Below, piece after piece: positions 4,016-24,853 of a DNA stretch of 64,000 bases; the stretch's first letter is position 1; every line of letters starts with the position of its first letter. The translations under genes and the position numbers were made by a program. The DNA is from Schizochytrium sp. TIO01 (lineage: Eukaryota > Sar > Bigyra > Thraustochytrida > Thraustochytriidae). The DNA lies in assembly GCA_004764695.1 (NCBI GenBank), contig SMSO01000004.1, positions 709,501-773,500 of the forward strand, read 5' to 3'. The notes below the pieces were generated by a model. It did not search any database. It was not told the DNA's origin and was given only the letters and a program-made list of their open reading frames with translations.

Positions 4016-5285
4016 TCTGACTAAGAGTTTAGTCGCAGAGATTTATTTATTTATTTGTCTTACAAAGCAAAGTTCTTCAATCCTAGGCACAACCCTGATA
4101 GTTACGGGTTTGCTGCCTCATGGGCACCGAGAAGAAATCATCCCATGCAGATGTAGTTAACATCATGGAATAGCATTGGAAACCAAAAACTGCTCCTATT
4201 CTTAAATACATCAAAACCCCAAACTGGTACTAGTAGGTAGGTGGGATTGATCTCTGTCTGATACGGTAATGGGTGCAGTTTACTTCTGTGTGCATACTCG
4301 ACAAGATGGGTTATTTTATGAATATAATAGTACCATGATAGGTGTTGCCTACTGCTTTGCAGAATCTGCGCAAAACCAGCTCAGCCTGTTTAGCCAGCTT
4401 GACCAGCTTAGCCAGCCAAGTGCTTCCGCAATCGCAGATGTCAACGTTCCAAGATCAAATCGAGCGTCGAACTGGTCACAGCAAGGCAGCAGTGCACACC
4501 AGGCGCCTCGGACCCACACTGCTTAACTTCGAGTACCCGCGCTGGTGGCGCCGGTGCTGCTCTTGGCAACAACTTCGAACATGCACCTTCAAGAATGAAC
4601 CTTGAATCGAAGTTCAACCTTGGAAATTGGGTTGAATGACTGAAAAATACTTTTAAATTTGGTTAATTACACTTGAAATGACTTGGAACTTTTTTAAAAT
4701 TAAAAAATCCAATGAAAATGTTTATATATTATTTTATTGGAATTGACAGCAAGAAGATTATCAATCGACTTACTCCATAGTACACATGATCATCAAACAT
4801 AACCACTCAGTACAGGATAAAATGAGTAAGAATATCATGAAGCTATACTAAGTAGCTTGCAATGAGAATCACAAAATATCTATGGAAAGAACATCATATT
4901 AACTTTGCTAGATACTACTCCATTCCAACGTGTAGAAGTGGTGAAGCCAAGGAAATATCTTTATCCACGTGAAGGATCCAAACGCAATGGATCGTCGTAC
5001 TCAGATAAAGTGCAAAAGGCGAAAGCATATAAAAATTAATAAAATCGAGATGCTGAAATTCAAGTTAAATTCCTGCTGCTATGCGTGCTTAACAAAGAAT
5101 GACACAAAAAAAATGCAATTTGCCTTGTCACTACCACTCTGCTCTAAAACAGGCTTGCAGCTGCACTAGAATTTTATTCAGCAGTTTTAATTAAAACAAA
5201 GAGTGTCTAGTGTCTAGCTAGAATCAAAGAAACTACAAAAGTCGTCAGCTGATTCAAGGCCAAATATTAGAGTTAATTTATATAC
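4016..5285. repeat. Inter-copine spacer with duplicated block
   Basis: Contains the upstream region of copine copy 1 and the 3' flank of copy 2. Around 4340-4620 it resembles 7400-7620 upstream of copy 2, including a 25-nt identical run at 4444-4468 and 7449-7473. The duplicated unit therefore extends several hundred bases 5' of the coding region. The rest is A+T rich. A TAGTAGGTAGGTGG motif lies at 4231-4244. No gene supported. Confidence 0.6.
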
Positions 5286-7088
5286 TTAAAAGTGATATGG
5301 TGGAGCAGATGGCTGGGAAGGCGCAGGTGCAGGGTCAGATACGGGTACTGCAAATGGTGCGTCTGGTTCAGCAATGCCACCACCATTTATCATCCGTTGG
5401 GAATGCTCCACAGCTAGGTGACGCCGTGAGGCCTCGGTAGGAGGGTTGGGTCGCACGCCTTTTGAAGACATGTATGACACTAGCTGATCAGGAATCTCTG
5501 CAAGAACCTCACGAGCCAAGGATGTGTAATGCTGCTGAGCGAACTTTCGAAACGGGACGAACTGGACGATATCGCGAGACATCAAACGCCCATCAGCACG
5601 CAATGGCACGTCATCTGCGTCGAGGGTCTCCATATTTGAGAAATCTGCAGAGCCCACGCCCACAATGACAATCGACAAGGGAAGATCCGAAGCATGCACA
5701 ATTTGGCGAATTGTAGAACTCATATCATTAATGACACCATCTGTAATGATGAGTAACACAGTATAGCTTTGGTACCCCTGGGTGGCCTGCTCGCTTGCAT
5801 AAGAAGAAGCCTTTGATAATAAAGGCGTGAAAAGCGTTGGGCCGTGTAGCGATACCACGTCAAACGCATTTCTATATGCCTCCATCACACCTTCAATGCC
5901 TGATACTTCTGGACAAGATTCGTCAAATGTCAAAGGGAAGCAGTGACTTACCTTACCATTGATTGCACCACCGAATCCAAACACCGGAATTTGTCCATCA
6001 GTATCATAGGCCTGAAGGATCTCACCCACTGACACAATGACCCGTTGGTACTCATTTAGTTGATCTACATGCCGTAAGCTATTCGAGTAAGCAGAGCCTT
6101 GATAATGTAAAGACTGGGGTGTAGATACTGCTCCATTTGAGGCTGTAAAGTCAATGCCAATCATTAGATTAAGCTCACATCCACCCCGGATGTAGTCAAG
6201 GAAGCTAAATCGCTTTTCGACAGAGCAGTGTCTGATGAAAAAGGTTCCCGAGCCTTTATACTTAGAGCCCTTCTTCTTCTTCATGTCAGGGTTTTCCAAA
6301 GTGAAGGACTTATCGGGTTGGAATTCACGTAATGATGATGTGAATTCGCCAATGAGTACATGCGATCCACTTGAGTTCCAATCATAAACGCGAATGAGCA
6401 AAGGTCGATCGAAATCACCGTTGCACAGTACCTGCACAGGAATTACGATTGGGCGCCAGATTGGGTTGAGCTCTTTGAGGATATGCTCGCTTTCCCAAAC
6501 CTTGACAAATGAACCGTCTTCTCTTGAACGAGAAATTGTAACGAACGGGTCTGATCGGCCTAGGCCAAACCAGTCTTTACGATCAAGCTTACTAGCAGCA
6601 AATTGTAAATGTGCAACATCTTTACAGGAGGCCACCTCCTCGCCACGCACAATAAGCTTGCCCCTGACTCGGCCAGACTGAGGTGACAAGAGATCGCTAC
6701 TCCAAAGGGCTCCTTTCGAGCCCATGATAGATGCAAGTGTTGTGTTGGCGCCGCCAATGAAGTCATGTTTTTTCAGGTCCTCATCCTCTGCATCGCGATC
6801 ATAGACCTCAAAGCGCAAATATTGCTGGACCTCAAACTGATAATTAAAGAGAATTTGATCGGGAAAGTCTGGGTTGAGGTTATCCCAGATTGTCTTGCTT
6901 CTGTAAAACTCCTTCCAAGGTTTGTCTGTACGTTCCCTGGTATAAACCACAACGAATGGGTCGCTTTTCGACAAGAGATCCATGTTCCGCAGACCGCGGC
7001 AGCTCACAAAGAGCTCCACCTGCGAGCTCAGGGATGCCGCGCCCGTCTCTGGGTCCACGACCTGAGCCATTGGCACAGCGCCTTGCAT
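5286..7088 (-). CDS. CPNE: Copine, tandem copy 2
   Basis: Second single-exon copine of 600 residues, same strand and same length as copy 1. C2A, C2B and A domains are all intact: SDPFVVVYT and DRDAED in C2A, SDPFVTISRSREDGS and VYDWN in C2B, GIDFTASNG as the MIDAS motif. Differences from copy 1 cluster in surface loops and the C-terminal tail, which here is Pro/Ala-rich and ends in SAPPYHF rather than FNSKYGY. Both copies keep the calcium-loop aspartates, so neither looks decayed. Both probably bind membranes in a calcium-dependent way, with separation perhaps by expression or partner. The ATG at 7088 aligns with the start of copy 1 (both begin MQGAVPMA). Confidence 0.93.
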   Translation of the reverse strand: MQGAVPMAQVVDPETGAASLSSQVELFVSCRGLRNMDLLSKSDPFVVVYTRERTDKPWKEFYRSKTIWDNLNPDFPDQILFNYQFEVQQYLRFEVYDRDAEDEDLKKHDFIGGANTTLASIMGSKGALWSSDLLSPQSGRVRGKLIVRGEEVASCKDVAHLQFAASKLDRKDWFGLGRSDPFVTISRSREDGSFVKVWESEHILKELNPIWRPIVIPVQVLCNGDFDRPLLIRVYDWNSSGSHVLIGEFTSSLREFQPDKSFTLENPDMKKKKGSKYKGSGTFFIRHCSVEKRFSFLDYIRGGCELNLMIGIDFTASNGAVSTPQSLHYQGSAYSNSLRHVDQLNEYQRVIVSVGEILQAYDTDGQIPVFGFGGAINGKVSHCFPLTFDESCPEVSGIEGVMEAYRNAFDVVSLHGPTLFTPLLSKASSYASEQATQGYQSYTVLLIITDGVINDMSSTIRQIVHASDLPLSIVIVGVGSADFSNMETLDADDVPLRADGRLMSRDIVQFVPFRKFAQQHYTSLAREVLAEIPDQLVSYMSSKGVRPNPPTEASRRHLAVEHSQRMINGGGIAEPDAPFAVPVSDPAPAPSQPSAPPYHF

Positions 7089-8848
7089 CCTGTCTAAAGA
7101 TGCCGATCAGGACGTAAGGATGTACTTATGCACGAACAAAAAAACTAATCACACGCAAAATACTCCAATCAAAGAGTCACTCTTGCTTCTTTACGATCTT
7201 TCTCGCAAAGAAGAGATACCACTCTGGACACAACTCTATTAAAGTACTAGTAGCAGTTCAACCTGCAAGTATTACGGTATTATTCACGTACGAGCAAAGG
7301 TTTTCCCTCGTAAAAGGAGGGTTACTCGGCGAAGAAGAAGAAGAAGCAGCCGCAGCCGCAGCAGCAGCAGCAGCACGAACTATTAGTAGTACCTACAGCA
7401 ATTGCTCACGAGGCCAAGCTCTTCCGCAAGCGCCGCTGTCAACCTACTACGTTCCAAGATCAAATCGAGCGTCCCCGCGCCGCAGCTGGGTTGCAGCGCA
7501 CACCAGTTGCCCCCGTGCCTACGCTAGCTAACTCTGGGTGCGAATGCTGGTAGCGCTGCTGCTGTCACTCCTGCAAACTTGAAGCACAGGACGCAGTTCC
7601 AGAGAGTTGGAATCGGGTTATGGAGGTGAACAAACTTTGATCAAAATGAAGCGAAGAATCGATTTTTAAACTTTAGTATAAAAGAATCAATGCCTAACAG
7701 AATAAGAAGAAAGAAAGAAAGTCTCTTCATTTCCTTTCTACTATGATGACTAAGATAAACAGCGGAAGTCTTATGAATAAGATGGATTAGGAGGCCTAGT
7801 AGGTGCATAGTACTAAATATAATATGATAATAAACTTGAATCTTTTCGTTCACTTATCTATTATGCAATCAAACTTCGTGTAACCTGGTCCGATTGCCCT
7901 TCGAGTTAATTTGCAGTTACCATCAATGGCCTTGGGAAAATGGATAAACTTAAGCGCCGTTGGGAAGGGTTGCTTGGGAGCAATGGCATGAGCAAAAGCT
8001 CGACGAACGGATTGGCTTGCCTGGGAAACCACTAGCAACTCTTTAAGATGTAGGAATTCGGCTGAAATGTTCAACAGGATAAGAAATATCAAAACAAAGG
8101 TGGGGGTATTCTGTACTTTAACACATTAATTTTCAGTTTAAATGTTTTTATAATTTCTTGCTGTAAAGCTTCTATTTATTTTATATAGATGTCATATAGG
8201 AAGGGCCGGCGCTAGAAAGAGCCGAGCGCAGTGGTCTCAAACTACCCCCCGGTTCCCGCTTCAGCATTGGAGATTGATCGATTTTGTGATTTCATGATTG
8301 ACATAGAACGATATAACAAGAAAGTTCAAGTTAGTCAGCTGCAGCAGCAGTGATTCTGTTTGCGAGCTGAGCACTTAGGAATAGACTCCAAGATATTTGG
8401 CGACGGCCTGCAGCAACGGCACCGCAGAAGCATGCTGATCACAGGTGAAAAAAGACGTGGTCCACTCCAGCTGCTGGAAATTGTCCCGGGTTGATGAGCA
8501 CTTTTGACACTGCCCAGGTATCTATCTACCTCGCTGTGCTCAGTAGACGCGGGCTTTAGAAGAAAGGCAGCGCAGATCACTAGCAGCTTCAACAAAAAGT
8601 GCTTTGCTTTGGCGTCTCGTGGGCAAAGAACCCGCTCGGAAACTTGACAGTTCTGCAGGTTTGACAGTGTCGAGGAAATATAGATTTTGCGCTTACGTCT
8701 AGGAGAGTGAGCTGGCTATACTATGTTAGGTTATTGCATTGCTGATGAACCGGCAATTCTCATGTCCGAACCTAGCAAGATTTACCTTGGAAAATAAAAC
8801 AAAAGTTCATGAGACTTATGTACCCATAATTTTGGAACGCGGACATAA
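7089..8848. other. Gene-free spacer upstream of copine copy 2
   Basis: Holds the upstream half of the duplicated copine unit (about 7400-7620), a GAAGAAG/CAGCAG trinucleotide-rich run at about 7331-7376 and A+T-rich DNA. The minus-strand open frame at 8335-8595 has no ATG. No gene supported. Confidence 0.5.
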
Positions 8849-9835
8849 AGAAGGGTTCCTCAAATTGACAGAGAAAGGGACAAGATCTTAAAGGAACAAC
8901 ACAAAGTCCTGGGAGATGGCGCGGATAAGGAAAAGGAATTCATCAAATATCTTGCTCTTTTTGCGAAGTCTCGCAAGCCCAAGAAAAGCCTGGCTGCCAC
9001 TGCAGAGGAAGTACTGTTGAAGAATAGAGGCTTCCTGTGGGCCGCCAGAGGAGGTTTCCTAGACAAATATGGCGATCTGCAAGGAGAAATCTGGTGCTAC
9101 CGAACCCAGGTTGCCTCGGAAACGGATTTCTTAGAGGTCAAACTGCTGGCTCAAACCACCAAAGCACTCCTCTACGAGCAGTGCGCCATGTTATTACCTC
9201 CGCTCCTGGAGGTGGGTGGCTTCATTTAGCCAGTGTGAATCCAGAAACGGTGAAACAATTTGCTATTTTCATAGCAAGTTTGGTGATGGACAGCTTTATT
9301 TTGCTCAGAATTGGAGAGAGTGATAACTTGCCCCTCGAGCTCGTGCCTGTCTTTCTGAGGACTTTGATAGGCTTATCGCGACAATGCGTGGTTGGATTGA
9401 CTCTTTGGCGTTGCTGTTGTTGGCGAGGATTTTGTCAAGGCTATATGTGAAGCTCAGGCCATGCAATTGAGGATTAAGGGTCGCCAGAATGAGTCACTCA
9501 TGCAACATCTTGGTGCTTTTATAAAGAACGAGAGAATCGAGTTTCCAGTTGATTGGGATATTACAACCTTCCTGGAAAGTTACCGCAAGAACAACAAATC
9601 ACACACCTACCGCTGTGTACTCGAGGACGAAAGGCAAGAATACTCCAAGGAGTGCGATTTGCTCATAGCTCGAATCCACTCAGATCCGCATTTTGGTCTC
9701 TGGAGTATGAAGTATCAGGAAGATATGGATCACCGCAAAATTCAGGCTATTCTGAAAATGGTTAAAGAGCAGGAGGACCCCCAACACCGTACCTTTAGGA
9801 GTCTTCGCGAGGCCTATAATGCCGTCGCTTGCTAA
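8849..9835 (+). pseudogene. Frame-broken gene of unknown function
   Basis: Protein-like sequence runs through this stretch but changes frame. Frame 2 is open from 8849 to 9229 (a basic/acidic helical text, then KNRGFLWAARGGFLDKYGDL). It continues best in frame 1 from about 9200 (GGWLHLASVNPETVKQFAIF) to about 9350, perhaps in frame 3 (CLSEDFDRLIATMRGWIDSL), and returns to frame 2 from about 9400 to a TAA at 9833-9835 (GEDFVKAICEAQAMQLRIKG onward). No GT-AG intron of sensible size repairs these steps. I do not recognise the family. The last 124 codons form a clean C-terminal frame with an ATG at 9461 and could be a small gene on their own. Decayed gene is the best reading, with sequence error the alternative. 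Confidence 0.45.
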
Positions 9836-10055
9836 GCGGTGTTTAGTGTTTTCGAGTTCATTCATACATTTTTTTTTTTTCGGTGTCTAGGATTAATAAA
9901 AGAAGCACCAGAAATTGAAACAAAACAAAACAAACAAACAAAACACAACAAAGATCGAATCACAAAGCCGTTTACAATTCTAATTATCAATCCACTTCAT
10001 TTTCTTTCTTCCATTTGGATCATCTATCCTCTTCTGTTTTGCTGAAGCCTGAATC

Positions 10056-11905
10056 ATGCCTTCTTTACGACGACTAGGGTCTATAGGCCTGTTCAGTTTC
10101 CTTCTTTCCACTTACTCTGGTTTCCTTGCTACAGCAGAGAGCTCTACTCCCATCTGGCTAGGCCGTATAAACTTGGGCGTGTTTAAAAATTGCAGTGATG
10201 CCTACGCGGCTTTCGAAGGGGCAATCAAAGCACTTGGGGAAGAGGCCGAAGAAAAAGAACAAGAACAAGAAGGAAAATCTCTTTCAGTTTTGCGTGAGCT
10301 GAAGTCATCTTCATCTTGCTTCATAAAATTCAGTGCTTTTGAGGACCAAGTCGAGGAATTACAGAATCGTCTCGATTGGCTGACTGAAATTGAAGCAGAC
10401 ATTGAGGTGGGCCATACTGGTGCCCCTTATGCGTGGGGACTTGACCGCGTGGACCAAACCTCTTTGCCTTTAGACAGGCGGCCTTACGAGCCTTTATACG
10501 ATGGTTCTGGCATAACGATCTATGTTTTAGACACGGGTGTTTACACTGAGCATAAGGAGTTTGACGGTGGTGAGCGGGCTTCCCTCGGTATAAATTTGGT
10601 TTCTGACGAATCTGCCGATAATCTAAATGGGCATGGCACGCACGTCGCCTCGCTAGCTGTAGGCACTCATGTCGGGACTGCCCCTGGCGCGCAGGTGGTG
10701 GCTGTGAAAGTGCTCAATAAATCTGGCAAAGGGAGCATTTCGCGAGTTATCGAAGGCATGCATTGGGTGCTCAACGAACTCGAAGAAAAGCAGAAGAATG
10801 AGACGAACGGCAGAGGTACAGGTGCGATTATGTCCATGTCGCTCGGAGGTAGCCGCAGTACTTTCTTTAACTCAGTTGTCAAAGAAGCCGTCGAGGCAGG
10901 TGTAGGTGTGGTGGTAGCTGCAAGCAACGACGCTCAGGATGCTTGCAAATCGAGCCCGGCGTCTGCTGAGGAGGCCATCACCGTGGGCGCGACGAAAAAG
11001 GGTGACAGCATGGCAGGTTACAGTAATTACGGGAGTTGCGTGGACCTTTACGCACCGGGCAGTAGCATCGAGGGGGCTTTGCATGGCTCGAGGACGAGTT
11101 ATCTTGTCATGTCTGGAACCAGCATGGCCACACCGGCGGTTTCAGGTGCCCTTGCGGGCCGGTTGCAGAAGCATAGCTGGGACCTTGCCAAGGCTACCAA
11201 GGATTTGCTGCTTTATACATCTCATAATCAGGTCACGAACACTCGCGGCAACGACGCTGCGGCGCAACTGCTTCGTGTAGAGCGGCAAGAGGAAACTTGG
11301 GTGCCCACGCCTCAGCCTACTCTCAGCCCAACGAACGAACCGGTGGAGATGTGAAGGTCTGCTTAGACTACTCGGCTTCGAGTTTCGGGCCTGCAGTGGC
11401 TCGAGAGAGCAAGCCCGTCGCTGGCGAGGTCGCTTTGGCCCTTACGGACTTGTGCAGTCACCCCAGTAACGCCGAAAAAAGGCAAATCAAGGGCAAGATG
11501 GTTGTGATTGACCGAGGCAGCTGTGCCTTTGTGGAGAAGGCAGCCAACGCCGAACGCGGTGGCGCCCGCGCTGCGCTTTTCCGTTTGATGAATACCTCTG
11601 CAAAGCTCTTTCCTCCTACTTCCTTTGAAAACCTAGTTACGCACATTCCCTCTGCACTGATTTCGTATAAGGATGGACAGAACCTGGAAAAGTATTACCT
11701 TGGGAAAACACTCTACTGGGGCCATGGTCCTCTGCCTGACACACTCACCAAAAGTCCTACAGCTAAGCCCACGAAGCCGGGCACGGATTGCTCGATTTTC
11801 AACCGCAAGAAGCGAAAATGCAAGCACAACCGCTTCTGTCACTGGGTCAAGTCAAGTAATCAGGCAACATGCGAGCTTAAAGAGATCTATCAGCGTGTCG
11901 CATAA
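10056..11905 (+). CDS. Secreted subtilase with PA domain, frame-broken
   Basis: A proteinase-K-like serine endopeptidase (S8). The first frame (10056-11354) gives a signal peptide (residues 1 to about 26, hydrophobic GLFSFLLSTYSGFL), an I9-like propeptide to about 125, and a catalytic domain with Asp in YVLDTGVY, His in NGHGTHVAS, oxyanion Asn in VVAASNDA and Ser in MSGTSMATPAVSG. It then runs into a PTPQPTLSPTNEP linker and stops at TGA 11352-11354. A second frame, shifted by -1 and open through 11905, continues with a protease-associated (PA) domain (GKMVVIDRGSCAFVEKAANA) and a Cys-rich basic tail. PA domains are normal subtilase partners, so the two frames are one gene missing one base near 11340-11352. 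A 32-nt GT-AG intron (11351-11382) would also restore the frame, but it is far shorter than the other introns here. Export and extracellular digestion are likely. Confidence 0.85.
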
Positions 11906-11989
11906 TGAGATAGATTTATCATGTCTATTTATTTCTTTTTATTTCTTTGTTGATTGATGAATTGATTTATCTATATTTTTCTTATATTC

Positions 11990-14197
11990 TTATTCCATCG
12001 ATCCTCGCATGTCTAAACTTCTTATGGACTCTCTTAAACGATGCAAATCATGCGCACAAGACCTTTTAAACTCAGCAGTGTGTTTGGGCTCGTAGACAGC
12101 ATCCCCGAAGTCAGTGATATAGAAGCGGGTACTCTCGTTAACAACGACCATATGGAAAGCAGAGAAACTTATATGACCGTGAGTGATTCCGTTTTCGTGG
12201 AGGGTTGTAAGTGCCTTAAACATTCCTTCTTGGACGAACTCTTGCTTTTTAACAGCGCGAGGCATGGTCCCCACGGGGGAGCCCTCACGTGAAGTCACCA
12301 AGATTTGTGGACTTTCTGTGGATTCACTAGCATAGAAAAGGTAAGGAGCGCATACTCCCTGCAGGCTGCGTAGAGGGCCCTTGTACATGTCAATTTCATT
12401 GAGAAATTGACCTTCAGAGCCTTCTTCCTCCTTGTCCAACATCTTTAGAACAAGGGGGATACCACTTACAGTCATTTTAATCGACTGGTCATAAAGGTCA
12501 GTATTCGGATGTTTTTCGAGAAGCTCCCATGGAAAACCAATGCAAATCTGCTTGAGAGGAAGATTGTCTATCAAGGCGAGACGAGCTGCATCTCCCTCAA
12601 GTTTCTTGATTGCGAAAAGATTTTCACTAACTGAAACATAGGCATTTTCCAGGTTGTCAATAATGTTTGCAGGGATCAATGCAGCATTGACACCAGCTCC
12701 AGGTACATTTCCACCGGCTCCGCCCCCGGCTCCCGCACCTGGCGGTTGTCCTCCGTGTCCTCCTTGGCCTCCTTGGCCACCTTGGCCACCGTTTCCTTGA
12801 TTACCGCCACCACCACCTTGCCCTCCGTTGTTGTTATTGTTGTTATTGTTGCCACCTTGTTGTTGCTGGGCTTGTTGAAGAGCGTTCCACGCGTTTACCA
12901 TCTCTTGAACAATCTGATTCTTTCGGTTTTGAGTTCTTTGATGACGTGCCTCTCGAGGAAAGGTGGTCCAGTAGTCGCTAAGATAACTATAGAACCGAGA
13001 AGGGTTTTCAACCACCATTCTATGCCCATTGTTCGTTTCTGCCTCTCTGGCAACATGCGTTAGAAAACTCATGAGCAGTGCGGCAGGTGAGTCGGTTGAA
13101 ATGCCCACCCCGGCGCCATTCAATCCAGGGCTGACGAACAAACGACCATCCGGTTCCATTTTCAAGAGCCAGGTCATCTCGCACGTCGAAAGAACTCCGT
13201 ACTTTCGTTGAAATGCTACCATGTAACCAGCAATCTGATATACACTTCTACGTGTGTGCTCGTCTCCCGCAGGCGCTTGAAGGTCAACATTATTTTCATC
13301 GATAGGGGCGTCGAGTTGATTTTGAGTGAGGCGTTGAGGAATGACAGCATTGCGGTTCCCTGTGGAAGCCGCAGGGCTGTAGTTGGGACCATAGTATCCC
13401 CTGACTAGGTTTCCTTGAGTAGGAATGTTGCGATTCATGAACTCCGACTGCATACAATCAGGTGCCTTGAGTTCAAAGACGACGAGATCCTCTCCGTCAA
13501 GAGATACTACGAAGTCTGGTCGCAGAAGGACAGTCGACGTTTTCTGTTGTCGAACCTTGAACCTTCGGTTCGGTGATTTGAACTCTACAGCCCAATACTT
13601 TTTGAGAACCTTTACGATAAACTGGAGTATACCTTCGCCATCCTCAGTATTTGCAAAGAAATCTTCAGCTTCTATATTGGAACATTTTGTATTAAAAGAA
13701 GCATCTCTAAAATTAGACCCCTCGCCGAAAGCGATGCCGTGCTCCCGAACATTATTCATGGTAATGGCGTGTTTTATTTCGACGCGAAAATTTAGCCAAT
13801 TGAGAACCTGAGCGGGTACAACGGCTCCTGGTGCAGGAGGAGTGGCCATCTCGAGCAATTCGTCGTTGCCTATGCGTGCCGGTACCTGGTACATGCGTTG
13901 AGAAAGAAGGTAAATGGCAGGTATGTGAGCAGTACGTTGATCGGCGTATTTATCCATTACCCTCTCGGCGAGATCTCGATCCGCAGCGGGCATATTTGGG
14001 TTAGCTACGAGGTGGTCACTAATTGTCTGACACATCTCTGTAAGCTGCTCGGGAACCAATTGGTAAAGCAGGCGTTTCTCAGCACGAGAAGCAAGCATCA
14101 CATCCGGATAACTTGCATTAGCAAAGCTTATATTGGCGTGGTTCGTATTGATGAGACGCAAACAAGCAGCATCCGCATCCGCCTGTGCATTCGCCAT
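11990..14197 (-). CDS. PD-(D/E)XK nuclease fused to pseudokinase
   Basis: A 735-residue single-exon protein in two parts. The N-terminal half has a restriction-endonuclease-fold core: LLRPDFVVSLDG with D228, then VVFELKAPD with E242-L-K244, the PD...ExK metal-binding signature. A Gln/Asn/Gly/Pro-rich linker (about 440-505) follows. The C-terminal part looks like a protein kinase: VAIK-type lysine K585 (IPLVLKML), a helix-C glutamate (FLNEIDMY), a catalytic loop reading H673-G-H675 instead of HxD, Ala680 where the metal-binding Asn should be, and an intact D696-F-G. It is probably catalytically dead or atypical. Nuclease and kinase tails are known in Crinkler-type and related eukaryotic effector or transposon-linked proteins, which is the nearest architecture I know. 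No signal peptide or LxLFLAK leader is seen. The start is the ATG at 14197; the frame runs on to a TTG at 14230. Convergent with the subtilase, 84 bp apart. Confidence 0.75.
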   Translation of the reverse strand: MANAQADADAACLRLINTNHANISFANASYPDVMLASRAEKRLLYQLVPEQLTEMCQTISDHLVANPNMPAADRDLAERVMDKYADQRTAHIPAIYLLSQRMYQVPARIGNDELLEMATPPAPGAVVPAQVLNWLNFRVEIKHAITMNNVREHGIAFGEGSNFRDASFNTKCSNIEAEDFFANTEDGEGILQFIVKVLKKYWAVEFKSPNRRFKVRQQKTSTVLLRPDFVVSLDGEDLVVFELKAPDCMQSEFMNRNIPTQGNLVRGYYGPNYSPAASTGNRNAVIPQRLTQNQLDAPIDENNVDLQAPAGDEHTRRSVYQIAGYMVAFQRKYGVLSTCEMTWLLKMEPDGRLFVSPGLNGAGVGISTDSPAALLMSFLTHVAREAETNNGHRMVVENPSRFYSYLSDYWTTFPREARHQRTQNRKNQIVQEMVNAWNALQQAQQQQGGNNNNNNNNGGQGGGGGNQGNGGQGGQGGQGGHGGQPPGAGAGGGAGGNVPGAGVNAALIPANIIDNLENAYVSVSENLFAIKKLEGDAARLALIDNLPLKQICIGFPWELLEKHPNTDLYDQSIKMTVSGIPLVLKMLDKEEEGSEGQFLNEIDMYKGPLRSLQGVCAPYLFYASESTESPQILVTSREGSPVGTMPRAVKKQEFVQEGMFKALTTLHENGITHGHISFSAFHMVVVNESTRFYITDFGDAVYEPKHTAEFKRSCAHDLHRLRESIRSLDMRGSME

Positions 14198-14758
14198 GGT
14201 GAGGGTTTCAACTGGAAACTCTGCCCACAAGCTTCTGCGCCTCTTACATTTCGTCGATTTCTAAACCTTTTCACCTTTACTGTTGTTCAAAGTCGTCTGC
14301 CGACTTCTTCTGTTCTTGTTTCGCACGCCCAGTTGCGTGTTTGCATTCCCCTTTCCATCATTCAAAGGCCAGTGAAGTATTTTCATTATTTATTATTTTT
14401 AATTGAAATAACTAGTTAGAAGGTACTGAGTGCACGCGCACGTGAATCTTTTTTGTGTGCTCGTGGCCCTAGAGATGATCGATAGTTCGGCACTTTCTAT
14501 GTTCTGAGAGTGCCTACTGAAAATATTTAATACTACTAATGACAACACTAATACTAATAATTGACGGCTTGTTGGTTTGTTTTAAAGCTTCCTAGTGTTT
14601 GTCATGAGATATAGTATAGTAGATATTTTGATTGATCGATTGAAAATGAAGAGAGGACGATTAAAGAAAAAGGATTCTTATTTTTTTTCAGAGTGTGTGA
14701 CAAATATTTTATTTATTTTTTAAGGAAAGGGTGTGCGAAAAAAACAAAACAAAAAAAC
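14198..14758. other. Divergent promoter spacer
   Basis: A+T-rich region between the nuclease/pseudokinase gene and the methyltransferase fragment, which are transcribed away from each other. It has T- and A-runs at about 14681-14760. No gene supported. Confidence 0.4.
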
Positions 14759-15146
14759 ATGAATGCTGACAACACCAATCGAGAAGACTATTGGGAAAGG
14801 ACCTACTCAGAGCCACACACAAGCGATAACGCCCACGCGCTCAAACGAACCACTCCCTCGAGTTTTGCAGAGTTTGCAATCCGCAAGCGACTAGATTATG
14901 TCCTTTCTGCTCCAAAACCTGGATCTGTAATTGACAGATTTGGCGTTGCAGTAGAATTAGGCTGCGGCTCTGGACAAGAAAGACTCCTGCTACTTGTCAT
15001 CGTTCTTCGATCATCTTGTTGCGGTAGATGCCTCGGAGGCTGCGTGTGCGTCGACTCAAGCAAGGGCCGCACAGACTGATTCTAAGCATGTCCAAGTCCT
15101 GAGGGCCAACGCGGCTAGGAAACCAAAAGAAAGGGAACGTAGCTAA
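14759..15146 (+). pseudogene. Truncated SAM methyltransferase
   Basis: ATG at 14759 opens MNADNTNREDYWERTYSEP and leads to a class I SAM-methyltransferase motif I, VAVELGCGSGQ, at about residue 65. The frame then slips by +1 near 14975-14985: motif II only makes sense in the next frame (SSFFDHLVAVDASEAACA, then HVQVLRANAA), which ends at TAA 15144-15146. The fold needs about 100 more residues and none are found downstream. Similarity stops near 15115, where an array of palindromic repeats begins, and the final codons and stop are made of repeat sequence. So there are two lesions, a one-base frame shift and loss of the C-terminal half. The family resembles small-molecule (TMT-type) methyltransferases, but the substrate cannot be told. 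Confidence 0.7.
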
Positions 15147-15290: not shown

Positions 15291-16537
15291 CAAAAAATCA
15301 TAGATGCTGGAAAGTCCTAAGAAAGGTCTAGTGTCTCTTATAAAATATATACAGCTAGCTACGGAGATATGGTAATTTTTTCTTACTCTCAAAATGAATA
15401 CTATGAAAATCTATATCTGATTTAACATCGATACTCCCCTTAGCTTCAGGCTAAGTCTAATGTAACCAGTGCTTTTGGTTTTTGTTCATTCTCATAAATT
15501 GTATAGCTGAGTATTCTTTTTACAACTCATCATGCCTAATTACTTGTTGACTTAGGAGCAAAACCATAAATGAATATTATTACCTACCTAACTACAAAAT
15601 ATCGATAGCCACAGCTGTAAATCGCTCCGTACAAAAGTGCTCATAGCGGCCCGATGATACGTCAGTTCATTCACCAGATTTGATTTTCTTCACTGTATTT
15701 TATCTTTCAACGCAAATTTCATCTATGCAAGCTATACCCCACGATAAACTACACCAATGTACCAAGACTCGACTATGTTTCCTTCGCCTTGCGTTGTTTC
15801 CATGGACAACTTTTTCATCTCCTGATCTATAAATACTCCACTCAAGCATCCATTTCTACCTGTTCACAGCCATCACAATCGTCCCAGCTACGCTTCCCAT
15901 AGACCTTAATAGTCTCTCCATTCTCTAGCTTGTATATCCAACATTTAAGGTTTCTTTGCCTTTTCCTTTCTTCATGATATCCTCGCTAAACTATACGGAC
16001 TCCTTCAAAGGGTCCCGGGGCGTGAAACGGCTGCGCAATTCTCTGTTATGGATAGTGTGCTATAGTTTAGTATAAATGGTTGCTAGAAGGATAGAGGAGG
16101 AAATGGAGAAGCAGCTGAGTAGTTATTTGCTGTGCAGCGGAAGGCCACCAAGCATCAAACCAGAGCTGACAGGGCTTGGCAAAGTCCAAGGTCATAGGAT
16201 AACTCTGTTTGTGAAGGTGGTTGTGATTGCTGATATAGTCAGTTTACACAAGTTAAAACCTCGCGACGAGCACTGGCGTGATTAGAACTTTGGATCGTTG
16301 TGCCCGAGGCGAGCCTCGGCTCAGTTTTGCTCGGTTCGCGTGCCGACAACAGGACTTGTAACACAGCTCAACCATTGAAAAGCATAACCTGGAGATAACT
16401 GCGAGATAGAAACGGTTCTCTCTGGAGGGAGAAACGTGTAAGGGAAACGCGCAGGAGAGCCTTCTTATTTCTGGTGTCAGAGACGGATTTAGAGCGGCAA
16501 ACCGGCTTCGAAGAGGCCCTTCTTCTAGCTAGTAAAG
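15291..16537. other. Gene-free spacer upstream of Aurora gene 1
   Basis: A+T-rich DNA with a TACCTACCTA motif at 15581-15590 and an AGCTAGCTACGG word at 15353-15364 that echoes the palindromes nearby. From about 16290 the sequence becomes more G+C rich, which probably marks the promoter and leader of the kinase at 16538. No methyltransferase C-terminus found. Confidence 0.45.
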
Positions 16538-17689
16538 ATGGACTTCCGCGGAGGTCTAAAGGAAAACAACCGTACCAACTATGGCAGTAACAGCAGTGGA
16601 GGCAGTAATGGTAGTGGCCCTAGCTCCACAACAGTTCGGGATCCAGAAGGTATGCGGCAAAAGATGACCAAAATGGGCGGGGCCATGCGGATTCCACAGA
16701 ATATTCCTCGCGGAGGAGGCATGGGTGCGGAGGTGACTGAGAGCAAAGACCCTAGCGATAGGCCCAACCGCGCTCTCAACCGACCTGCAAAGGCACGTGA
16801 AAGCATGGTCCCTGTGGACCCATTCACATCGGACGACGCGAACAATAACTGGAGTCTGGACAAATTTGACATTGGCAAGAAGCTTGGCAGCGGTAAATTC
16901 GGCAATGTGTATCTCGCACGAGAGCGCAAGCATGAGTACGTAGTAGCCATCAAAGTTTTACAAAAGTCTCAGCTGCAGAAAAATAATGTTGAGCACCAAC
17001 TACGCCGCGAGATCGAGATTCAAGCACACTTGCGTCACAAAAACGTTCTGCGTCTTTTTACATTTTTCCACGATGAAAAACGAATTTACCTTGTTTTGGA
17101 GTTTGTAGCGCGTGGTGAGCTCTATAAAGAGCTCCAGCGCAAAGGCCGCTTTCGGGAGCGCCGAGCTGCGCGGTATATTCGTCAGATCGCCGAGGCACTT
17201 GCGTACTGTCACAGTAAGAACGTGATTCACCGTGATATTAAGCCCGAAAATCTCTTGCTCACACTCAATGACGAACTGAAGATTGCAGATTTCGGTTGGT
17301 CTGCCCATGGTTCCAGCCGTCGTGAAACTATGTGTGGTACTTTGGATTACCTGCCTCCTGAAATGGTAGAGCGCAAAGGTTATGATGAGAAGGTTGATAA
17401 CTGGAGTCTTGGAGTCCTTGCTTACGAATTTTTAGCCGGTCGGCCACCGTTTGAGACAGAGGGTCAGGAAGCTACGTTCCAGCTGATTCTTCAGGTCCGC
17501 TATACCTTCCCATCACACTTCTCTCCTGCTGCCAAGAGTTTTATTAAGTCATTGCTCAGGAAACGGCCTGAAGATCGCATGCCCCTTTCAGAGGTTCCAA
17601 ATCACGAATGGATCAAACTCAATGCGCCACTTGTTGAAAAAAAACTTTACAGCAACATTAACCCAACTCAGGTGAGCACTCGCACATGA
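16538..17689 (+). CDS. AURK: Aurora-type Ser/Thr kinase 1
   Basis: Aurora kinases phosphorylate mitotic targets at spindle poles, centromeres and the midzone. This 383-residue single-exon protein has a 104-residue Gly/Ser-rich head and then the kinase domain from W105 ([20 protein letters not shown]). It has K139 (VAIKVL), H231-R-D233 in [14 protein letters not shown]251-F-G-W and the Aurora-type activation segment [11 protein letters not shown] with T264. DFGW, RRxTxCGT and the WxLxxFxIG entry are Aurora hallmarks and separate it from PLK or AGC kinases. Small oddities: LPPEM where APE is normal, and DNWSLG for DxWSLG. It ends in a short tail. First of four related genes in 10.7 kb. Which of A, B or plant-like types it represents cannot be decided by eye. 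Confidence 0.92.
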
Positions 17690-18173: not shown

Positions 18174-18245
18174 GAGTCGTTAGCTCAGTGGTAGAGCGTT
18201 CGATTGCAGTTCGAATGGTCACGCGTTCAACTCGCGTACGGCTCT
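18174..18245 (+). tRNA. trnC-GCA: tRNA-Cys (GCA)
   Basis: A complete cloverleaf without intron. The acceptor stem GAGTCGT pairs with ACGGCTC (one G-T). The D arm is GCTC-AGTGGTA-GAGC, the anticodon arm TTCGA-TTGCAGT-TCGAA with anticodon GCA, the variable loop TGGTC and the T arm ACGCG-TTCAACT-CGCGT. The discriminator base is T, as is usual for tRNA-Cys. The A box (TAGCTCAGTGG) and B box (GTTCAACTC) are internal, and a T-run at 18249-18254 would end Pol III transcription. It sits between two Aurora kinase genes. Confidence 0.95.
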
Positions 18246-18580: not shown

Positions 18581-20090
18581 CTACTTTCGCATGTTTGTAA
18601 GAATCCAAGGATGGTCTTGGATTTGTTGAAGAGTGAGTCTCTCTTCTGGAGACGATCGAAGAAGCTTCGATACAAATTCTCGAGCTTCCTTAGAAACGTA
18701 GTCAGGGTAGTCAACCTCGTTTTGCATGATCTTCGTGTATGTAAGTTGCATACTAGGAGCATCAAAGGGAGGGTTGCCAGTGAGAAATTCGTAGGCAAGC
18801 ACTCCAAGACTCCAAATATCAGCTCTTGCGTCATGAGGTACACCGGCCACCATCTCAGGGGCCAAGTAATCTAGCTGATAGTTATGTATCGAATTATAAC
18901 AGATTTACGCAGTTAGTACACCAATTGTTTTATTTCTAGCATGAACAAGCGGGGGGTTAACTTACGGTACCACAGAGTGTATTGCGACGTGAGCTGGGGG
19001 CATGAACGGACGAACCAAAATCGCTAATGCGAATCTCCCCGTCGGCTCCTAGTAATAGATTTTCTGGCTTCAGGTCTCGGTGAATTACATTCTTTTCGTG
19101 TAAATGCTCAAGAGCCTGAGCTAATTGCACAATATACCTAGCAGTTGTTGGTTCGTCGAACCGACCGCACTCCTTGAGGGATTCGTAAATTTCACCGTTA
19201 GGTGCGTGCTCTAAGATAACATAGATTCGCTTCGCATCGTAAAAGTACCCATGTAGGCGAAGAACATTATTGTGGTGGAGCGTAGCCTGGATCTCAATTT
19301 CACGCCGCAGTTGATATGCTGCATCTTGACGCACGAGTTGTGCCTTATCAAGAACTTTAAGAGCCACAACATAGCGGCTTTGTTTTTCACGGGCCAAGTA
19401 CACATTGCCATATTTTCCACTTCCAAGCTGACGTCCAATTTCAAAGTCGTCCAAAGACCATGTGCTTCCAGGTTTCGCAGGAGCTCTGTGTGCTGTTGAT
19501 GAGCCGCTTGCAGGTGTAAGAACTCCTTTCGACACATGGTCAGCTTGAGGTTTGTAACCTTTAAGAAGCGGAGTCTGCGCTAGCCCAGCATTACGTGAGC
19601 GTTTACGTGCTGCTTCGGCACTTTTCAAGGCACTTCGTGCTTCCTTGTTGAGCATTTTATGATTGGCTTCTGGAGTGCCCATTGGTTGAAAGTGGTATTG
19701 CTCTTTATCATCGTCGTCGTCAAATGCGAGGCTTCCGCGATCTGATGCGCGAAAGAACTCATGAACTTCAAAGGACTCGTCCTGCCCATCTCCATCAAGC
19801 ATCTCCTCATCATTCACATCTCCAAAGACTTCATCGTTTAAGATTTCAGGTTGCCTTTGTCCATGATATTGCTGCTGCTGCTGCTGCTGTTGCTGCTGAG
19901 ACCTCGAAGAAGAGTTCGATTCACGTTTCGCATATAGCGGCGCTGCTGCCAAAGTGGTCGTCGTTGGAGCAGCCGTTTTCCCCGTTACTGCCACATGTGC
20001 ATACCGCCTTTGCGCAGGGTCTTGAGTACTTCTTGCTTTTCTTGCACTTCTTAACGCAACCTCGCGTTTCCTGGCACTAAACTCGTTCAT
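18581..20090 (-). CDS. AURK: Aurora-type Ser/Thr kinase 2, one intron
   Basis: Two exons, 20090-18966 and 18874-18581, join across a 91-nt phase-0 intron with donor GTAAGT and acceptor CAG. The join restores the activation segment as RRNTLCGT then LDYLAPEM. The product is 472 residues. It has a basic N-terminus, a poly-Gln run (CAG repeats at about 19870-19898), an acidic stretch, and the kinase domain from W211 ([20 protein letters not shown]) with [19 protein letters not shown] and [13 protein letters not shown]. The DFG motif reads DFGSSVH, so the tryptophan that follows DFG in most Auroras is Ser here. It is transcribed against its three relatives. Catalytic residues are all present, so it should be active. 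Confidence 0.9.
18875..18965 (-). other. Intron in Aurora 2
   Basis: 91-nt GT-AG intron. The donor GTAAGT directly follows the codon for Thr of CGT, and the acceptor CAG precedes CTAGATTAC. An in-frame stop lies three codons into the intron, so splicing is needed for a full kinase. Confidence 0.88.
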
Positions 20091-21245
20091 TCTCGCAGAT
20101 CAAGCCCGACTTTCACGCCCAAGATCCTTGCAGAACCACGATTCTGCTACAACTTATTTGCGCTTTGATCTCCATCTTTTCCTACTTGATAAGTTCTCTT
20201 TAAATCATCTCAGTTTCGCTCTGCGCCATATTAGCATTAAGGGATCTCAAAATGGGTTGCGCATTCGAAGCATACGATTTTCCGCTTTTTGTTGCCTCTA
20301 TCCGTCTCAATACAATCGACCTGTTCATTGTAATGTGCAACCATAAGCAGACCAGGTGCTGGGGCCCGTTTCTTTTCGATTGTGCCTCGCTGGGACCCGA
20401 AACCGAGGTTTCTTTGGCTCTTATGGCAGCCGCTTTCCTAAAAGAGGCCGCTCTAGCTTACGAAAGCCTCCCCTGAGACTGTGCTCCACGACGTTAACCT
20501 CGCGCCAAGGTCTCGTGGACGTGCCGCAGCAACTTGGCGGCGGTTTGCTGCGTGAAACCCTCATTTACTGCTTTCTTGTTAGTGACTTTTTGGTTGTTTT
20601 TACTTTTCTTTTTAGTAATATTTCTCTTTCTTTGCAAATCAGCGAATCGATCAACTCGCTCGACTGATTTCCTTCTGCTCCAAGCAGTGCAGCAGTCGCC
20701 TCTCACCGCAACGCCGCTCGAAGAACATCGTACCGAGTGCTAGGTGACCCTCGAGGCGGTGCCCTCATTAAAACGAGCTCCCTGAGAATTGGTGGGCCCC
20801 GCATTTGAAAGTCGTCGGCCAGCGAAGGAAACGAAATAACCGCAGCCACGGTATCGTGAGGTTACTCGACAAGCTCGCCTTCGTCTCCTGCATCGTATTC
20901 TGCCGGGTTTGGTTGCGCTTGGGATTGTTGGAGAACAATATAGTTAGCATAGGGTGTCGAAGTTCTGCTAGTCTAAGGGTCGCAGCTCTCATTTTTTCGA
21001 GTGGAGTTGGTGGGCAACTATTTGGATTACAAGGATCGAATTACGTTACGGTGGAATTTTGTCAAAACCATTGCGATTCTGCTGTCCTTACTGAGTTCTG
21101 ATTCACTTTGACCCCGCGATAATCGAGTTTGGGAAACTTCTTGGCTGACTCGAGAGTGTGGAGCCTCGAGCTAGAAGTCTTATTCCCGATTTTCTCTTTG
21201 TGTTTTTGGCCTTGTTACTTAACTTTAGCGTGGAGGTGATCAAGA
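20091..21245. other. Divergent spacer between Aurora 2 and Aurora 3
   Basis: Serves as the upstream region of both the minus-strand Aurora 2 and the plus-strand Aurora 3. The middle (about 20350-20900) is more G+C rich than other spacers, consistent with promoters and leaders. Short open frames on both strands have no recognisable content. Confidence 0.45.
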
Positions 21246-22794
21246 ATGTCGCAGCGAAGAGATAATTTTCAGAAGGCAGACAGCGTCAATGGAGGCATTT
21301 TACGGTCGCCAATCTATGGTGAAAACGCGATGCACGCAGGAAATAACACTAGCAGATTGCGCGGAATTAGTTGGGAAGACACTAAAGCTGCAGCTCTGCA
21401 ACAACAACAACAACAACAACAACATCCGCATCCGCATCCGCATCAAGTACATCCACCCGCATCAGCAATCACCTCTTCGCAAACCTCTCTATCAGCATCT
21501 AGTACAAACGAACCTCTGCCCGCAAAAACGGCAGTGCCGCAAGTCACCGATGAAATGATCAAGAGGTTTAGCAAGACCAGCATTGGTAGTACAACCAGCA
21601 CCAGCTCCAGCTCTAGCTCTGGAAGCTCTGCTGGAAGCAGCTACAGCGGGTTGACAAGCACAGATGCGCAGGAGTATGAGTGGGGCTACTAGTATAAGCA
21701 GTCATCGTTCGGCTTCTGCTTCATCGTTGCTTGACAACGTCTCCTCAGGAGCTTCACACCGGTCCACTGCAACCCACACTAGCGTGCAACCATCAGCATT
21801 GTTGTCATCAAGTATGAAAGCTACAACAAGCAGCGCTTCATCAACATTGGGAACAACGCCCGGCAGTTCCGTAAAAATTATGGCATCGAAGAGTGAGACC
21901 TCGGGTGAAACAAAGCCACGAAAACCTACAAGCGAGTCCAAAAGGTGGGGCTTGCAAGACTTTGAAGTAGGTCGAAGCCTCGGTAAAGGAAAGTTTGGTA
22001 ATGTATACCTTGCTCGAACAAAGAAAGAAAAGCGAGTCGTGGCACTTAAGGTTCTCTTCAAGGAAGAAATTGAAAAATCTGAGCTCATGCACCAGTTAAA
22101 ACGTGAAATCGAAATCCATCACCGTCTGCGACACAAAAACGTAGTGCGTTTATACTCATATTTTCACGACCGTGATCGCGTTTACCTGATTCTTGAATAT
22201 GTTCAAGGTGGTGAACTTTTCAGTGAGATTAAGAACTCCCCCTCGGGAAGATTTAGTGAAGAACGCGCTTCAGCCGTAATTCGCCAACTGGTTAGCGCTT
22301 TAGCGCAATGCCACCGGTTGGGCGTTGTGCATCGCGACATCAAGCCTGAGAATATCCTTGTGGCGCGTGATGGAACCATTAAACTGGCTGATTTTGGCTG
22401 GTCTGTGGCTGCCTCTCGTGCTGCGGAGGAAATTAAGCGGAAAACTCTATGTGGTACTTTGGATTACCTTGCCCCAGAAATGGTTGCAGAACAAGCGTAT
22501 AGTGAGCGCGCCGACATTTGGATGACAGGAGTCCTTTTGTACGAGATGTTAGTTGGAACTGCTCCCTTTGTTGCGCCTGATGCAATTAGCACATACAGCA
22601 AGGTGGAAATTTGCGAGTACCATTTACCTCCTGACATTTCTCCTGAAGGTCAAGACCTGCTCAAATCAATCCTTGTTAAAGACCCAGAGCAGCGTATATG
22701 GCCAATTCAAAAAATTCTCTACCATCCATGGATCGTCATGCACGCACCTTCTGAAGAAATTCAACGCATTCATCTTCAGGCCGGTCCTGTGTAA
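21246..22794 (+). CDS. AURK: Aurora-type Ser/Thr kinase 3, two overlapping frames
   Basis: The kinase frame (21664-22794, ATG, 376 residues) has a Ser/Thr-rich head. The kinase domain begins at W95 (WGLQDFEVGRSLGKGKFGNV) with [25 protein letters not shown] and [29 protein letters not shown] replaces the usual WSLG. Upstream and overlapping by 29 nt is a 148-codon frame (21246-21692, ATG) that is Gln/His/Ser-rich and has the same style as the heads of the sister genes. It looks like the true N-terminus, shifted by +1. A 28-nt GT-AG segment (21674-21701) would join the two frames, but it would be a very small intron. Otherwise there is a one-base insertion, or the kinase starts at 21664 behind a long upstream frame. 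Confidence 0.85.
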
Positions 22795-24853
22795 GGACGG
22801 CTGTCAACATGTTTTAATACCGCGGATAGTTCGCTAAGTATCATGCGGACTCTTTCTTTAAGCAATCACCGTACACTTTGTGCCTTCAAAATGAACTATC
22901 CTCTTCTCTTTGCAAGAATGAGGCCATCGGCACGTTCGCATGTATCCGTGCTTCAATGTTACACTCTTGCTTCTGTCGCCTCTGATCACTCAGCACCTGC
23001 CTACCGTTCACTTAGATTTTGCCCCTACTATTTGTTCTGATTACTGTTTCCGCAGTAATGAGGACAAACTCAAAATCCACAATTTACTTACCATATATAA
23101 TGCTCCATTCTAAATACTTCACATACGATTATAATCTCTCAATTACAGAAAACATAAATCCTCAGAACAAACAAACAAACAAAGCATTTATATTTTTTAA
23201 GATAACTCCCCAAGCCCAGCTCTATCATCTCAGTCTTCGTTGGAGTTTCTGCCTGTAAACGAATGTATTCGTGTACCAGCACTATTTTGTGATGTGTAAC
23301 TGATACGTCTCTTGCAAGGTGGATATAGCTAAAATGATAAATTAAAGGATTCTAAAGCCGTTCCTTTCTAATAAACCCATACTTTCAGTACACCTTTTCC
23401 ATCCCACGTTTACATGTCACTGCTGTCCTTGCCGGTAATCTACGTCATCCTGATCTTCATTTAATGCTCCTCAACGCCCGTTTTCCACTTCAGTCCTCCT
23501 AGAACTACTGGTAAATCTCGAATAGAAGAACGCATAATTACCATATAAGCTAAACTGGTATCCCCACTACAGTTTATGTGAACACTTTTGGAACAGCTTA
23601 TGCGAGAGTGGCTTGTACTCTGCTTAAGTCCTTCAAAGCAAGCGGATTTAAGTCCTTAAACTTGTCAACATGTACCAGAAATCAAAATGTATTGTAGTTT
23701 TTCAGGTCCTGCTTACGTCCGCTCAGAAAGAATAGATTGCTTGGAATTGAAGGTCTAGAATTAAAAACTTCTTTATCATTCATTCCTAACTGCCGGGTAC
23801 TATGTCCTTTCTAATATAAACTCTAATCCACGCATCGACCAGAGTTTTTTTTGTCTTCCACGTCTTACAAATTTACAGATTGTAATAGTTCTGTTGTGGT
23901 GTGTAGTTATCAAGAAGCCGGGGGCTGGGGGTCTGCTCACAAATACAAGGCACGCGGGAATGACAAGATGAAAATGAGTAGCTTGTGCATGCATATATAT
24001 CGACAAAGCATGTTTCACAGCTAAATATTCACCTATGCACATATTCACTTACTTGAGGTGCTTTGTTTTGATATCTTAGTACAATCATAGTGAACACCTA
24101 CCTTGTAGGTACTAGTACCTACCTACTATCTTTAAAAAATAAAATAAAATGAAAATAAAGTTTGAAAGAGAGATCGAGGCAAAGCATTCCCAAAGCCCTG
24201 GAGTCCTGCGTTGCAGGTGGCACGTGTCTCTGCAACACGCGGTGCGAGCGCTTCGCCTGCGGAAGGGAGGTACTTGGCGTTAGTTTTTTGCCTGTTCTGT
24301 CTTGGTTCCGGAGTCCTGGCGCCTGAAGGTCGCTCATTGGACCTGCATCGCTACATTGGGCCGTCTACAGGGAGTGGGGACTCCATAAAGGGACGAGGCC
24401 GAAGAAAGGTATTACGAAGTGCGCGAAGAAAACGAAGGATTTGGAGCTGGCGTGGTCTGGTAGATATAGGCTGAGCAAGAATCTTAAGGTGATTCCAGAC
24501 AACCTTTTAGGTTGTTAAGAAAATCTGCTATTAAGACTTCACCAAACGAGTTGGGACCAGAGTTTTTCTAAGTTTTGCCTTTAGATTGAAAATTTTGATA
24601 GTTTGCCTGTTTAGCAAGAGTTTAAGAGCGTCGCTTCGAAGATTAAGGAGCAGCTATTTTGCCAAGTGGTTGTGTATTTCGACGACTAGATCAAAGCGTG
24701 TCTATTATCATAGGTCTGGTGATTAGGTTGGTTCTCGTTAGAGCAGAACAGACTGTACCAGGTGATTGACTTGGTTTATCTGCACTGGTTCATCTCTGTG
24801 ACGCGAGTGCCATACCTCGCCCTACTCAGTTGATACTTTAAGGGCCTACGACA
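22795..24853. other. Gene-free spacer between Aurora 3 and Aurora 4
   Basis: 2 kb without a supportable gene. It contains a clustered CACCTACC/GTAGGTACTAGTACCTACC motif with internal inverted symmetry at 24095-24128. The part from about 24190 is more G+C rich and probably forms the promoter and leader of Aurora 4. Confidence 0.45.

What the first reader, a model, noticed from the sequence alone, without database searches (positions are those of the whole stretch)
11990..14197. PD-(D/E)XK nuclease joined to a dead protein kinase
One protein carries a full PD...ExK signature (D228, E242, K244) and, after a Gln/Asn/Gly linker, a kinase-like domain that keeps K585 and DFG but has HGH for HxD and Ala for the metal-binding Asn. 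Nuclease and kinase tails are known in Crinkler-type effectors and related selfish-element proteins. Here the usual leader and P-loop header are absent, so this may be a free-standing genome-defence or conflict protein in which the pseudokinase senses or regulates.
Basis: partly seen in the sequence, partly recalled or inferred. Interest (0 to 1): 0.75.

Follow-up and report, generated by a model that had tools for sequence, protein, structure and literature searches.

The report
Protist nuclease fused to dead kinase
A protist carries a large family of proteins that join a DNA-cutting-enzyme-like part to a small kinase part, and the one found here belongs to a branch whose kinase has lost its catalytic residues, which suggests a nuclease controlled by a non-catalytic switch.

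Summary
Window 11990-14197, minus strand, is one open frame of 735 aa with D228/E242/K244, a Q/N/G linker, and a kinase-like tail with K585 and DFG, but HGH for HxD and Ala680 for Asn. It is not a singleton: the same 64-Mb genome (probably a thraustochytrid) has at least 39 places with both parts. Among 27 long ORFs the D/E/K triad is complete in 22 and a QxxxY motif present in 22. The kinase is a minimal, Bud32-like one (window protein E=2e-4). Of 20 members outside the window's clade 18 keep the kinase catalytic residues; all six full-length clade members lack the Asp and the Asn. Nuclease and N-terminus change faster than the kinase. REase-kinase fusions are already described as a common Crinkler-type C-terminus (PMC5289972, passages), so this is a variant of a known kind, without a detectable Crinkler header. 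Function is inferred: a nuclease effector regulated by a catalytically dead kinase. Structure prediction failed.

The parts
11990..14197 (-). Whole gene: ATG to stop, 735 aa, single open frame
   Evidence: the start Met aligns in 6 of 6 clade members
13703..14197 (-). N-terminal region, residues 1-165, no known domain
   Evidence: no Pfam hit; conserved in the clade
12902..13690 (-). Nuclease-like region, residues 170-432
   Evidence: family alignment; weak nuclease hits of relatives
13466..13519 (-). PD...ExK stretch, residues 227-244 (D228, E242, K244)
   Evidence: triad complete in 22 of 27
13223..13237 (-). QxxxY motif, residues 321-325
   Evidence: 22 of 27
12668..12880 (-). Gln/Asn/Gly-rich linker, residues 440-510
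11993..12616 (-). Minimal Bud32-like kinase domain without catalytic residues, residues 528-735
12443..12445 (-). K585, the retained kinase lysine
12158..12181 (-). Altered catalytic loop, residues 673-680: HGH for HxD, Ala680 for Asn
12104..12112 (-). DFG, residues 696-698
11589..14958 (.). Segment duplicated at 92% identity on another contig (C6, locus L002), gene included

Best explanation
The protein belongs to a lineage-expanded family in which a PD-(D/E)xK-type nuclease domain (PD...ExK plus QxxxY) is followed by a minimal Bud32/Kdo-like kinase domain. Most likely it is a nuclease effector used in intracellular conflict (against invading or selfish DNA, or in self/non-self recognition), with the kinase-like domain controlling when the nuclease acts. 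In the window's clade the kinase can hardly phosphorylate any more; it probably holds or releases the nuclease by binding a nucleotide or a partner, or by forming mixed complexes with kinase-intact paralogues. Shown here: motifs, architecture, family, clade-wide loss of catalytic residues, faster change of nuclease and N-terminus than of kinase, and one gene pair with strongly different nuclease cores between alike flanks. Inferred: fold, nuclease activity, target, regulation, conflict role.
For: Triad in 22 of 27 and QxxxY in 22 of 27; relatives' weak HSDR_N and VRR_NUC hits; Bud32 in 21 of 23 members, window protein E=2e-4; clade-wide loss of Asp and Asn, 6 of 6, against 18 of 20 intact outside; pooled omega 1.11 N-terminus, 1.16 nuclease, 0.53 kinase, nuclease against kinase p=1.2e-4; L057/L054 nuclease-core difference between flanks 90% and 97.8% identical; kinase-domain likeness to anti-phage kinases PD-T4-6 (17 of 23 members) and MAD6 (16 and 17 of 23), which is of the general kinase core; CRN8 of Phytophthora infestans forms dimers, its D470N kinase mutant still kills and its R469A;D470A mutant is dominant negative (PMC3426532, passages).
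Against: No fold; nuclease profiles find nothing relevant in the PDB; no nuclease-family hit for the window protein itself. L007 of the clade has lost the nuclease triad, and so have L031, L046, L035 and L041 in part outside it. Kinase constraint in the dead clade is mixed: omega 0 in L001/L002 but 1.67 in L003/L004, pooled 0.93. dN above dS in the nuclease is not significant in the pool, p=0.12. In CRN8 the double kinase mutant and the five-serine mutant lost cell death, so kinase state does matter there. No expression data and no neighbouring defence gene was identified.
Confidence: 0.5

Rival explanations
1. It is a Crinkler-type effector that is delivered into another organism, with a header diverged beyond recognition.
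For: REase-kinase is a common CR C-terminus (PMC5289972); rapid turnover, with broken copies beside intact ones.
Against: No Crinkler domain in the protein or genome (control silent); no hydrophobic leader in the N-terminus as read by eye; the genome looks like that of a thraustochytrid, a group mostly of saprotrophs (recalled).
Confidence: 0.12
2. It is a housekeeping or DNA-repair nuclease with a regulatory kinase-like tail, with no part in conflict.
For: A QxxxY-type nuclease could process DNA ends (recalled); places are scattered without end bias.
Against: At least 39 divergent two-domain places, many broken, and omega near 1 in the nuclease; the window's copine paralogues give dN 0.11 and dS 1.20.
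Confidence: 0.15
3. The gene is a decaying relic: dead kinase first, nuclease to follow.
For: L007 has lost both active sites; broken relatives exist; L003/L004 kinase omega 1.67.
Against: 735 codons open; triad complete in 5 of 6 clade members; kinase part 0 non-synonymous against 4 synonymous changes in L001/L002, p=0.0021 uncorrected; whole-gene omega 0.20 between L001 and L003, though dS is near saturation.
Confidence: 0.1
4. The family is itself selfish: a mobile nuclease or toxin-like gene that spreads by breaking and copying into the genome.
For: Gene-sized duplication on another contig; many dispersed copies.
Against: No inverted repeats in 11500-15100; the copied segment includes part of a neighbouring PA-domain ORF, as a plain segmental copy would.
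Confidence: 0.1

Closest known systems
CR (Crinkler-RHS-type) proteins with REase-kinase C-termini (Zhang et al. 2016, not held; known here through the review PMC5289972)
   Same: REase-type domain followed by a kinase domain in one protein; large, fast-changing families
   Different: No Crinkler (Ubl/LFLAK) header found; minimal Bud32-like kinase; a clade with dead kinase. I could not compare sequences with theirs
CRN8 of Phytophthora infestans (PMC3426532, passages)
   Same: C-terminal kinase of a CR protein; its newly annotated REase part is mentioned in PMC5289972; dimer formation and dominant-negative kinase mutant
   Different: CRN8 is an active RD kinase with leader; the window protein lacks HxD-Asp and Asn
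Bud32 / Kae1-associated kinase and Kdo kinase (NCBIfam TIGR03724, NF002475)
   Same: Minimal kinase domain; 21 of 23 and 16 of 23 members match
   Different: Fused to a nuclease-like domain; catalytic residues lost in the window's clade
Type I restriction enzyme R-subunit N-terminus (Pfam HSDR_N)
   Same: PD...ExK followed by QxxxY; two relatives match at E=0.0046 and 0.0022
   Different: No helicase part; matches are below Pfam's cut-off; window protein itself has no hit
Anti-phage kinases PD-T4-6 and MAD6 (PADLOC, NCBIfam)
   Same: Kinase-core likeness in up to 17 of 23 members
   Different: Likeness is of the general kinase core; shared architecture was not tested

Membership tests
Crinkler / CR proteins | N-terminal Ubl/LFLAK header (Pfam Crinkler, PF20147) | tested here: not met
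   No Pfam hit in the protein at E<=10; none in the genome, control silent. Other header kinds were not tested
Crinkler / CR proteins | REase domain coupled to a kinase domain | tested here: met
   Motifs and profiles; no sequence of a published CR protein was compared
Crinkler / CR proteins | Delivery into another cell | not testable with these tools
   -
RHS (retrotransposon hot spot) proteins | Pfam RHSP domain | tested here: inconclusive
   None in the protein; none in the genome, but the control was silent
PD-(D/E)xK nucleases | D, E and K active-site triad | tested here: met
   Present here; complete in 22 of 27 ORFs
PD-(D/E)xK nucleases | QxxxY motif (HsdR/RecB-like branch; recalled) | tested here: met
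   Q321, Y325; 22 of 27 ORFs
PD-(D/E)xK nucleases | REase-like fold | tested here: inconclusive
   AlphaFold pLDDT 34.6 without alignment; no PDB match
PD-(D/E)xK nucleases | Nuclease activity | not testable with these tools
   -
Protein-kinase-like fold, Bud32-like | Sequence similarity over both lobes' core motifs | tested here: met
   TIGR03724 E=2e-4, residues 614-729; hhalign 3.5e-6 and 3.4e-30; below the model's curated cut-off
Active protein kinase | HxD aspartate and metal-binding asparagine | tested here: not met
   H675 and A680; lost in 6 of 6 full-length clade members

The most novel reading that the evidence does not exclude
A probably free-living protist runs a polymorphic intracellular immune or allorecognition repertoire of at least 39 nuclease-kinase loci, in which the nuclease and N-terminal parts diversify and are exchanged as cassettes while a minimal Bud32-like kinase is kept as the control module, and a whole clade has turned that kinase into a non-catalytic switch.
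Probability: 0.25. Interest if true: 0.8.

Novelty: new variant of a known kind. Interest (0 to 1): 0.5.

Why it matters
REase-kinase fusions are known mainly from Crinkler-type effectors, where how the kinase relates to the nuclease is unsettled. A family without detectable header in a probably free-living protist, with natural kinase-intact and kinase-dead clades side by side, makes that question directly testable, and asks what such proteins do apart from infection.

Tried and rejected
Tried without result: AlphaFold of residues 1-442 and 511-735 without an alignment (pLDDT 34.6 and 37.3), so no fold search was made. Rows fetched by the genome search were not handed to structure prediction because its stated rule does not list them. 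A PDB sequence search with the window protein gave 30 hits at E<=10, most of them on the Gly/Gln-rich linker; one kinase (CaM kinase 1G) at E=1.1 over 653-703. Five scans of viral contigs gave no relative. The one scan of bacterial and archaeal genomes gave two proteins alike in the kinase core; their ORFs of 303 and 332 aa show no nuclease part by eye.

Considered and rejected: chance motif (conservation); transposon with inverted repeats (none in 11500-15100); clustering at contig ends. Positive selection in the nuclease was considered and is not claimed: single pairs reach omega 2.7 (p=0.0037) and 3.1 (p=0.013) uncorrected, the pool does not (p=0.12).

Rows dropped: from the ORFs I chose 27 long ones (table). 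The tree used 24 (without L063, L035, L041); A1 used 23 (also without L046); the nuclease profile A4 used 21 of the 24 cut (without L007, L046, L061); the intact-kinase profile A6 used 16 (the 24 without the six clade members, L046 and L061). A4 and A6 therefore lean towards intact sites; the counts to trust are those. For one search I gave 62 of 62 rows, 71 of 71 and 32 of 71; the 39 left out were mostly kinase-only or at places already listed, so the kinase-only count is a lower bound. One of the 39 two-domain places (C6:1527868-1532056) holds two genes, and several are broken copies. The close pairs are seven of those printed, chosen as not sharing branches; L057/L054 was left out because its nuclease dS is saturated. 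The tree tool warns that long branches meet, among them L057/L054 with the window's clade, so that sister relation is unsure.

Papers: Zhang et al. 2016 is not held. PMC5289972, PMC3426532, PMC6131194 and PMC9815663: passages only. All others: search listings only. Searches for the family in thraustochytrids (one paper, PMC5772912, not opened; 10 of 17 listed), for pseudokinase with Crinkler (4 papers), for selection on Crinkler domains (10 of 12 listed) and for Bud32-nuclease fusions (10 of 63 listed, none of the ten holding the word bud32) showed no listed paper whose title or abstract start describes this family; that does not show that none exists.

Full report
Observation. The ORF lies on the minus strand of 11990-14197 and is a single open frame of 735 aa. 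All residues named in the finding are where it says. Frame 1 of the plus strand over the same stretch is broken by stops. That the gene has no intron is read from the unbroken frame and the clade alignment, not from transcripts.

Genome and host. The window is contig C3:709501-773500 of a 64.06-Mb assembly in 37 contigs. Two strong PfaD-type PUFA-synthase matches lie in open frames of 2044 and 1647 aa (E=1.6e-201 and 6.0e-201). I take this as pointing to a thraustochytrid; that such genes are typical of thraustochytrids is recalled, not from a call. Elicitin, Crinkler and RHSP searches gave nothing, but their controls were silent too, so they prove little. No tool named the organism.

Family. 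A protein search of the genome gave 62 matches at E<=0.01. Two more queries gave 71 each at E<=1e-4. Merging 165 of these 204 rows gave 86 places: 39 with both nuclease and kinase segments, 41 kinase only, 6 nuclease only. The search scores only its best candidates, so these are lower bounds. The two-domain places show no end bias (mean relative distance to the nearest contig end 0.253 for 38 of 39 places with known contig length, 0.25 expected; 3 within 100 kb of an end). Some are intact long ORFs, others are broken.

Nuclease part. Among 27 long ORFs the triad aligned with D228/E242/K244 is complete in 22 (not in L007, L031, L046, L035, L041). QxxxY (Q321, Y325) is present in 22 of 27; that this motif marks HsdR/RecB-like nucleases is recalled. 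L064 and L065 match Pfam HSDR_N at E=0.0046 and 0.0022, L038 matches VRR_NUC at 0.11, over stretches that include these residues. All are below Pfam's cut-offs, and the window protein itself has no Pfam hit. A PDB search with 21 nuclease segments found nothing; one with 10 found one hit at E=0.85 without bearing on the matter. The fold is likely but not shown.

Kinase part. Pfam Pkinase is found at E<=1 in 18 of 23 members and NCBIfam Bud32 at E<=0.1 in 21 of 23, among them the window protein (E=2e-4, residues 614-729). The clade profile against the family's intact kinases gives E=3.4e-30, against two kinases of the window 3.5e-6, against PDB chains at best 0.02 (casein kinase I). In 26 of 27 ORFs only 26-59 residues follow the DFG glycine (L063 is broken there), against 130 in a kinase ORF of the window. 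So this is a minimal kinase, like Bud32 and Kdo kinases.

Dead clade. The window protein groups with L002, L003, L004, L005 and L007 with support 100/100. All six lack the HxD aspartate (H, H, A, N, S, N in the order L001, L002, L003, L004, L005, L007) and carry Ala for the Asn; K585 is kept in five of six and DFG in four of six. Three fragments of the clade that can be read at the motif lack the Asp too (L058, L052, L053); two others cannot be read there (L055, L047), and L056 and L063 stop before it. Of 20 members outside the clade 18 keep K, HxD, Asn and the DFG Asp; L046 and L035 do not. Loss in the clade's ancestor is the simplest reading.

Evolution. Seven close pairs that share no branch give pooled omega 1.11 (N-terminus), 1.16 (nuclease) and 0.53 (kinase); nuclease against kinase p=1.2e-4, nuclease higher in 7 of 7 pairs. 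dN above dS is not significant in the pool (p=0.19 and 0.12). The window's two copine paralogues give dN 0.11 and dS 1.20. Within the dead clade the kinase shows no amino-acid change in L001/L002 but omega 1.67 in L003/L004, pooled 0.93, so recent constraint there is mixed. The deeper comparison of L001 with L003 shows long-term constraint (whole-gene omega 0.20, dS about 2, near saturation). L057 and L054 share 90.1% DNA identity over 576 bases at the 5' side and 97.8% over 2216 bases of kinase end and downstream flank, while 40-residue windows from 161 to 560 are 17-68% identical: module replacement, or extreme local divergence.

The duplication. The window gene and L002 share 11589-14958 at 92.4%, including part of a neighbouring PA-domain ORF. 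No inverted repeats were found in 11500-15100. This looks like a segmental copy rather than a bounded mobile element.

Mechanism. The best reading is a nuclease effector under control of a kinase-like domain. In CRN8, the closest studied protein I could read about, a D470N kinase mutant still caused cell death, the protein forms dimers, and the R469A;D470A mutant lost cell death and was dominant negative; a five-serine mutant also lost it (PMC3426532). The review PMC5289972 reports the view of Zhang et al. that the nuclease is toxic and the kinase regulates it. A clade that gave up catalysis but kept the domain fits regulation by binding. Whether the target is viral DNA, a transposon or a competing cell is open; nothing here decides.

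Placement. The architecture matches the REase-kinase class of CR C-termini; the header that defines Crinklers was tested for in the protein and not found, so I say that it works like them and do not file it as one. New variant of a known kind; interest 0.5.

Noticed in passing
window 16529-17686 (+), 18960-20099 (-), 21655-22791 (+), 24842-27187 (+): Four ORFs with full or partial Pfam protein-kinase domains within 11 kb; the first two look Aurora-like to me (recalled). Unlike the finding's kinase they are ordinary kinases.
   Followed up: no
window 2216-4042 (-) and 5289-7106 (-): Two tandem copine genes, dN 0.11 and dS 1.20 between them; used as a yardstick.
   Followed up: partly
window 10053-11351 (+) and 11228-11902 (+): Subtilase ORF and overlapping PA-domain ORF, probably exons of one gene, convergent with the finding's gene; the duplicated segment of the finding ends inside the second.
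   Followed up: partly
G000 C7:820368 and 832146; C35:480201 and 491967; C13:3255207 and 3266961; C31:6678569 and 6687302: Pairs of kinase matches 11.75-11.78 kb apart on three contigs and 8.7 kb apart on a fourth, in ORFs of 726-740 aa: perhaps a large repeated mobile or viral element that carries kinases.
   Followed up: no
G000 C1:8494 and 13151; C34:3335628 and 3340314: Kinase matches with equal scores and nearly equal spacing (4657 and 4686 bases) on C1 and inside C34: perhaps an element present both as a separate contig and integrated. Only observed.
   Followed up: no
L005 4636-4966 against window 9207-9531: The flank of paralogue L005, on the same contig, holds two short stretches 80-83% identical to the window about 2.5 kb beyond the 3' end of the gene: a shared repeat or an old local duplication.
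   Followed up: no
window 18174-18245 (+): tRNA-Cys (GCA) gene between the kinase ORFs.
   Followed up: no
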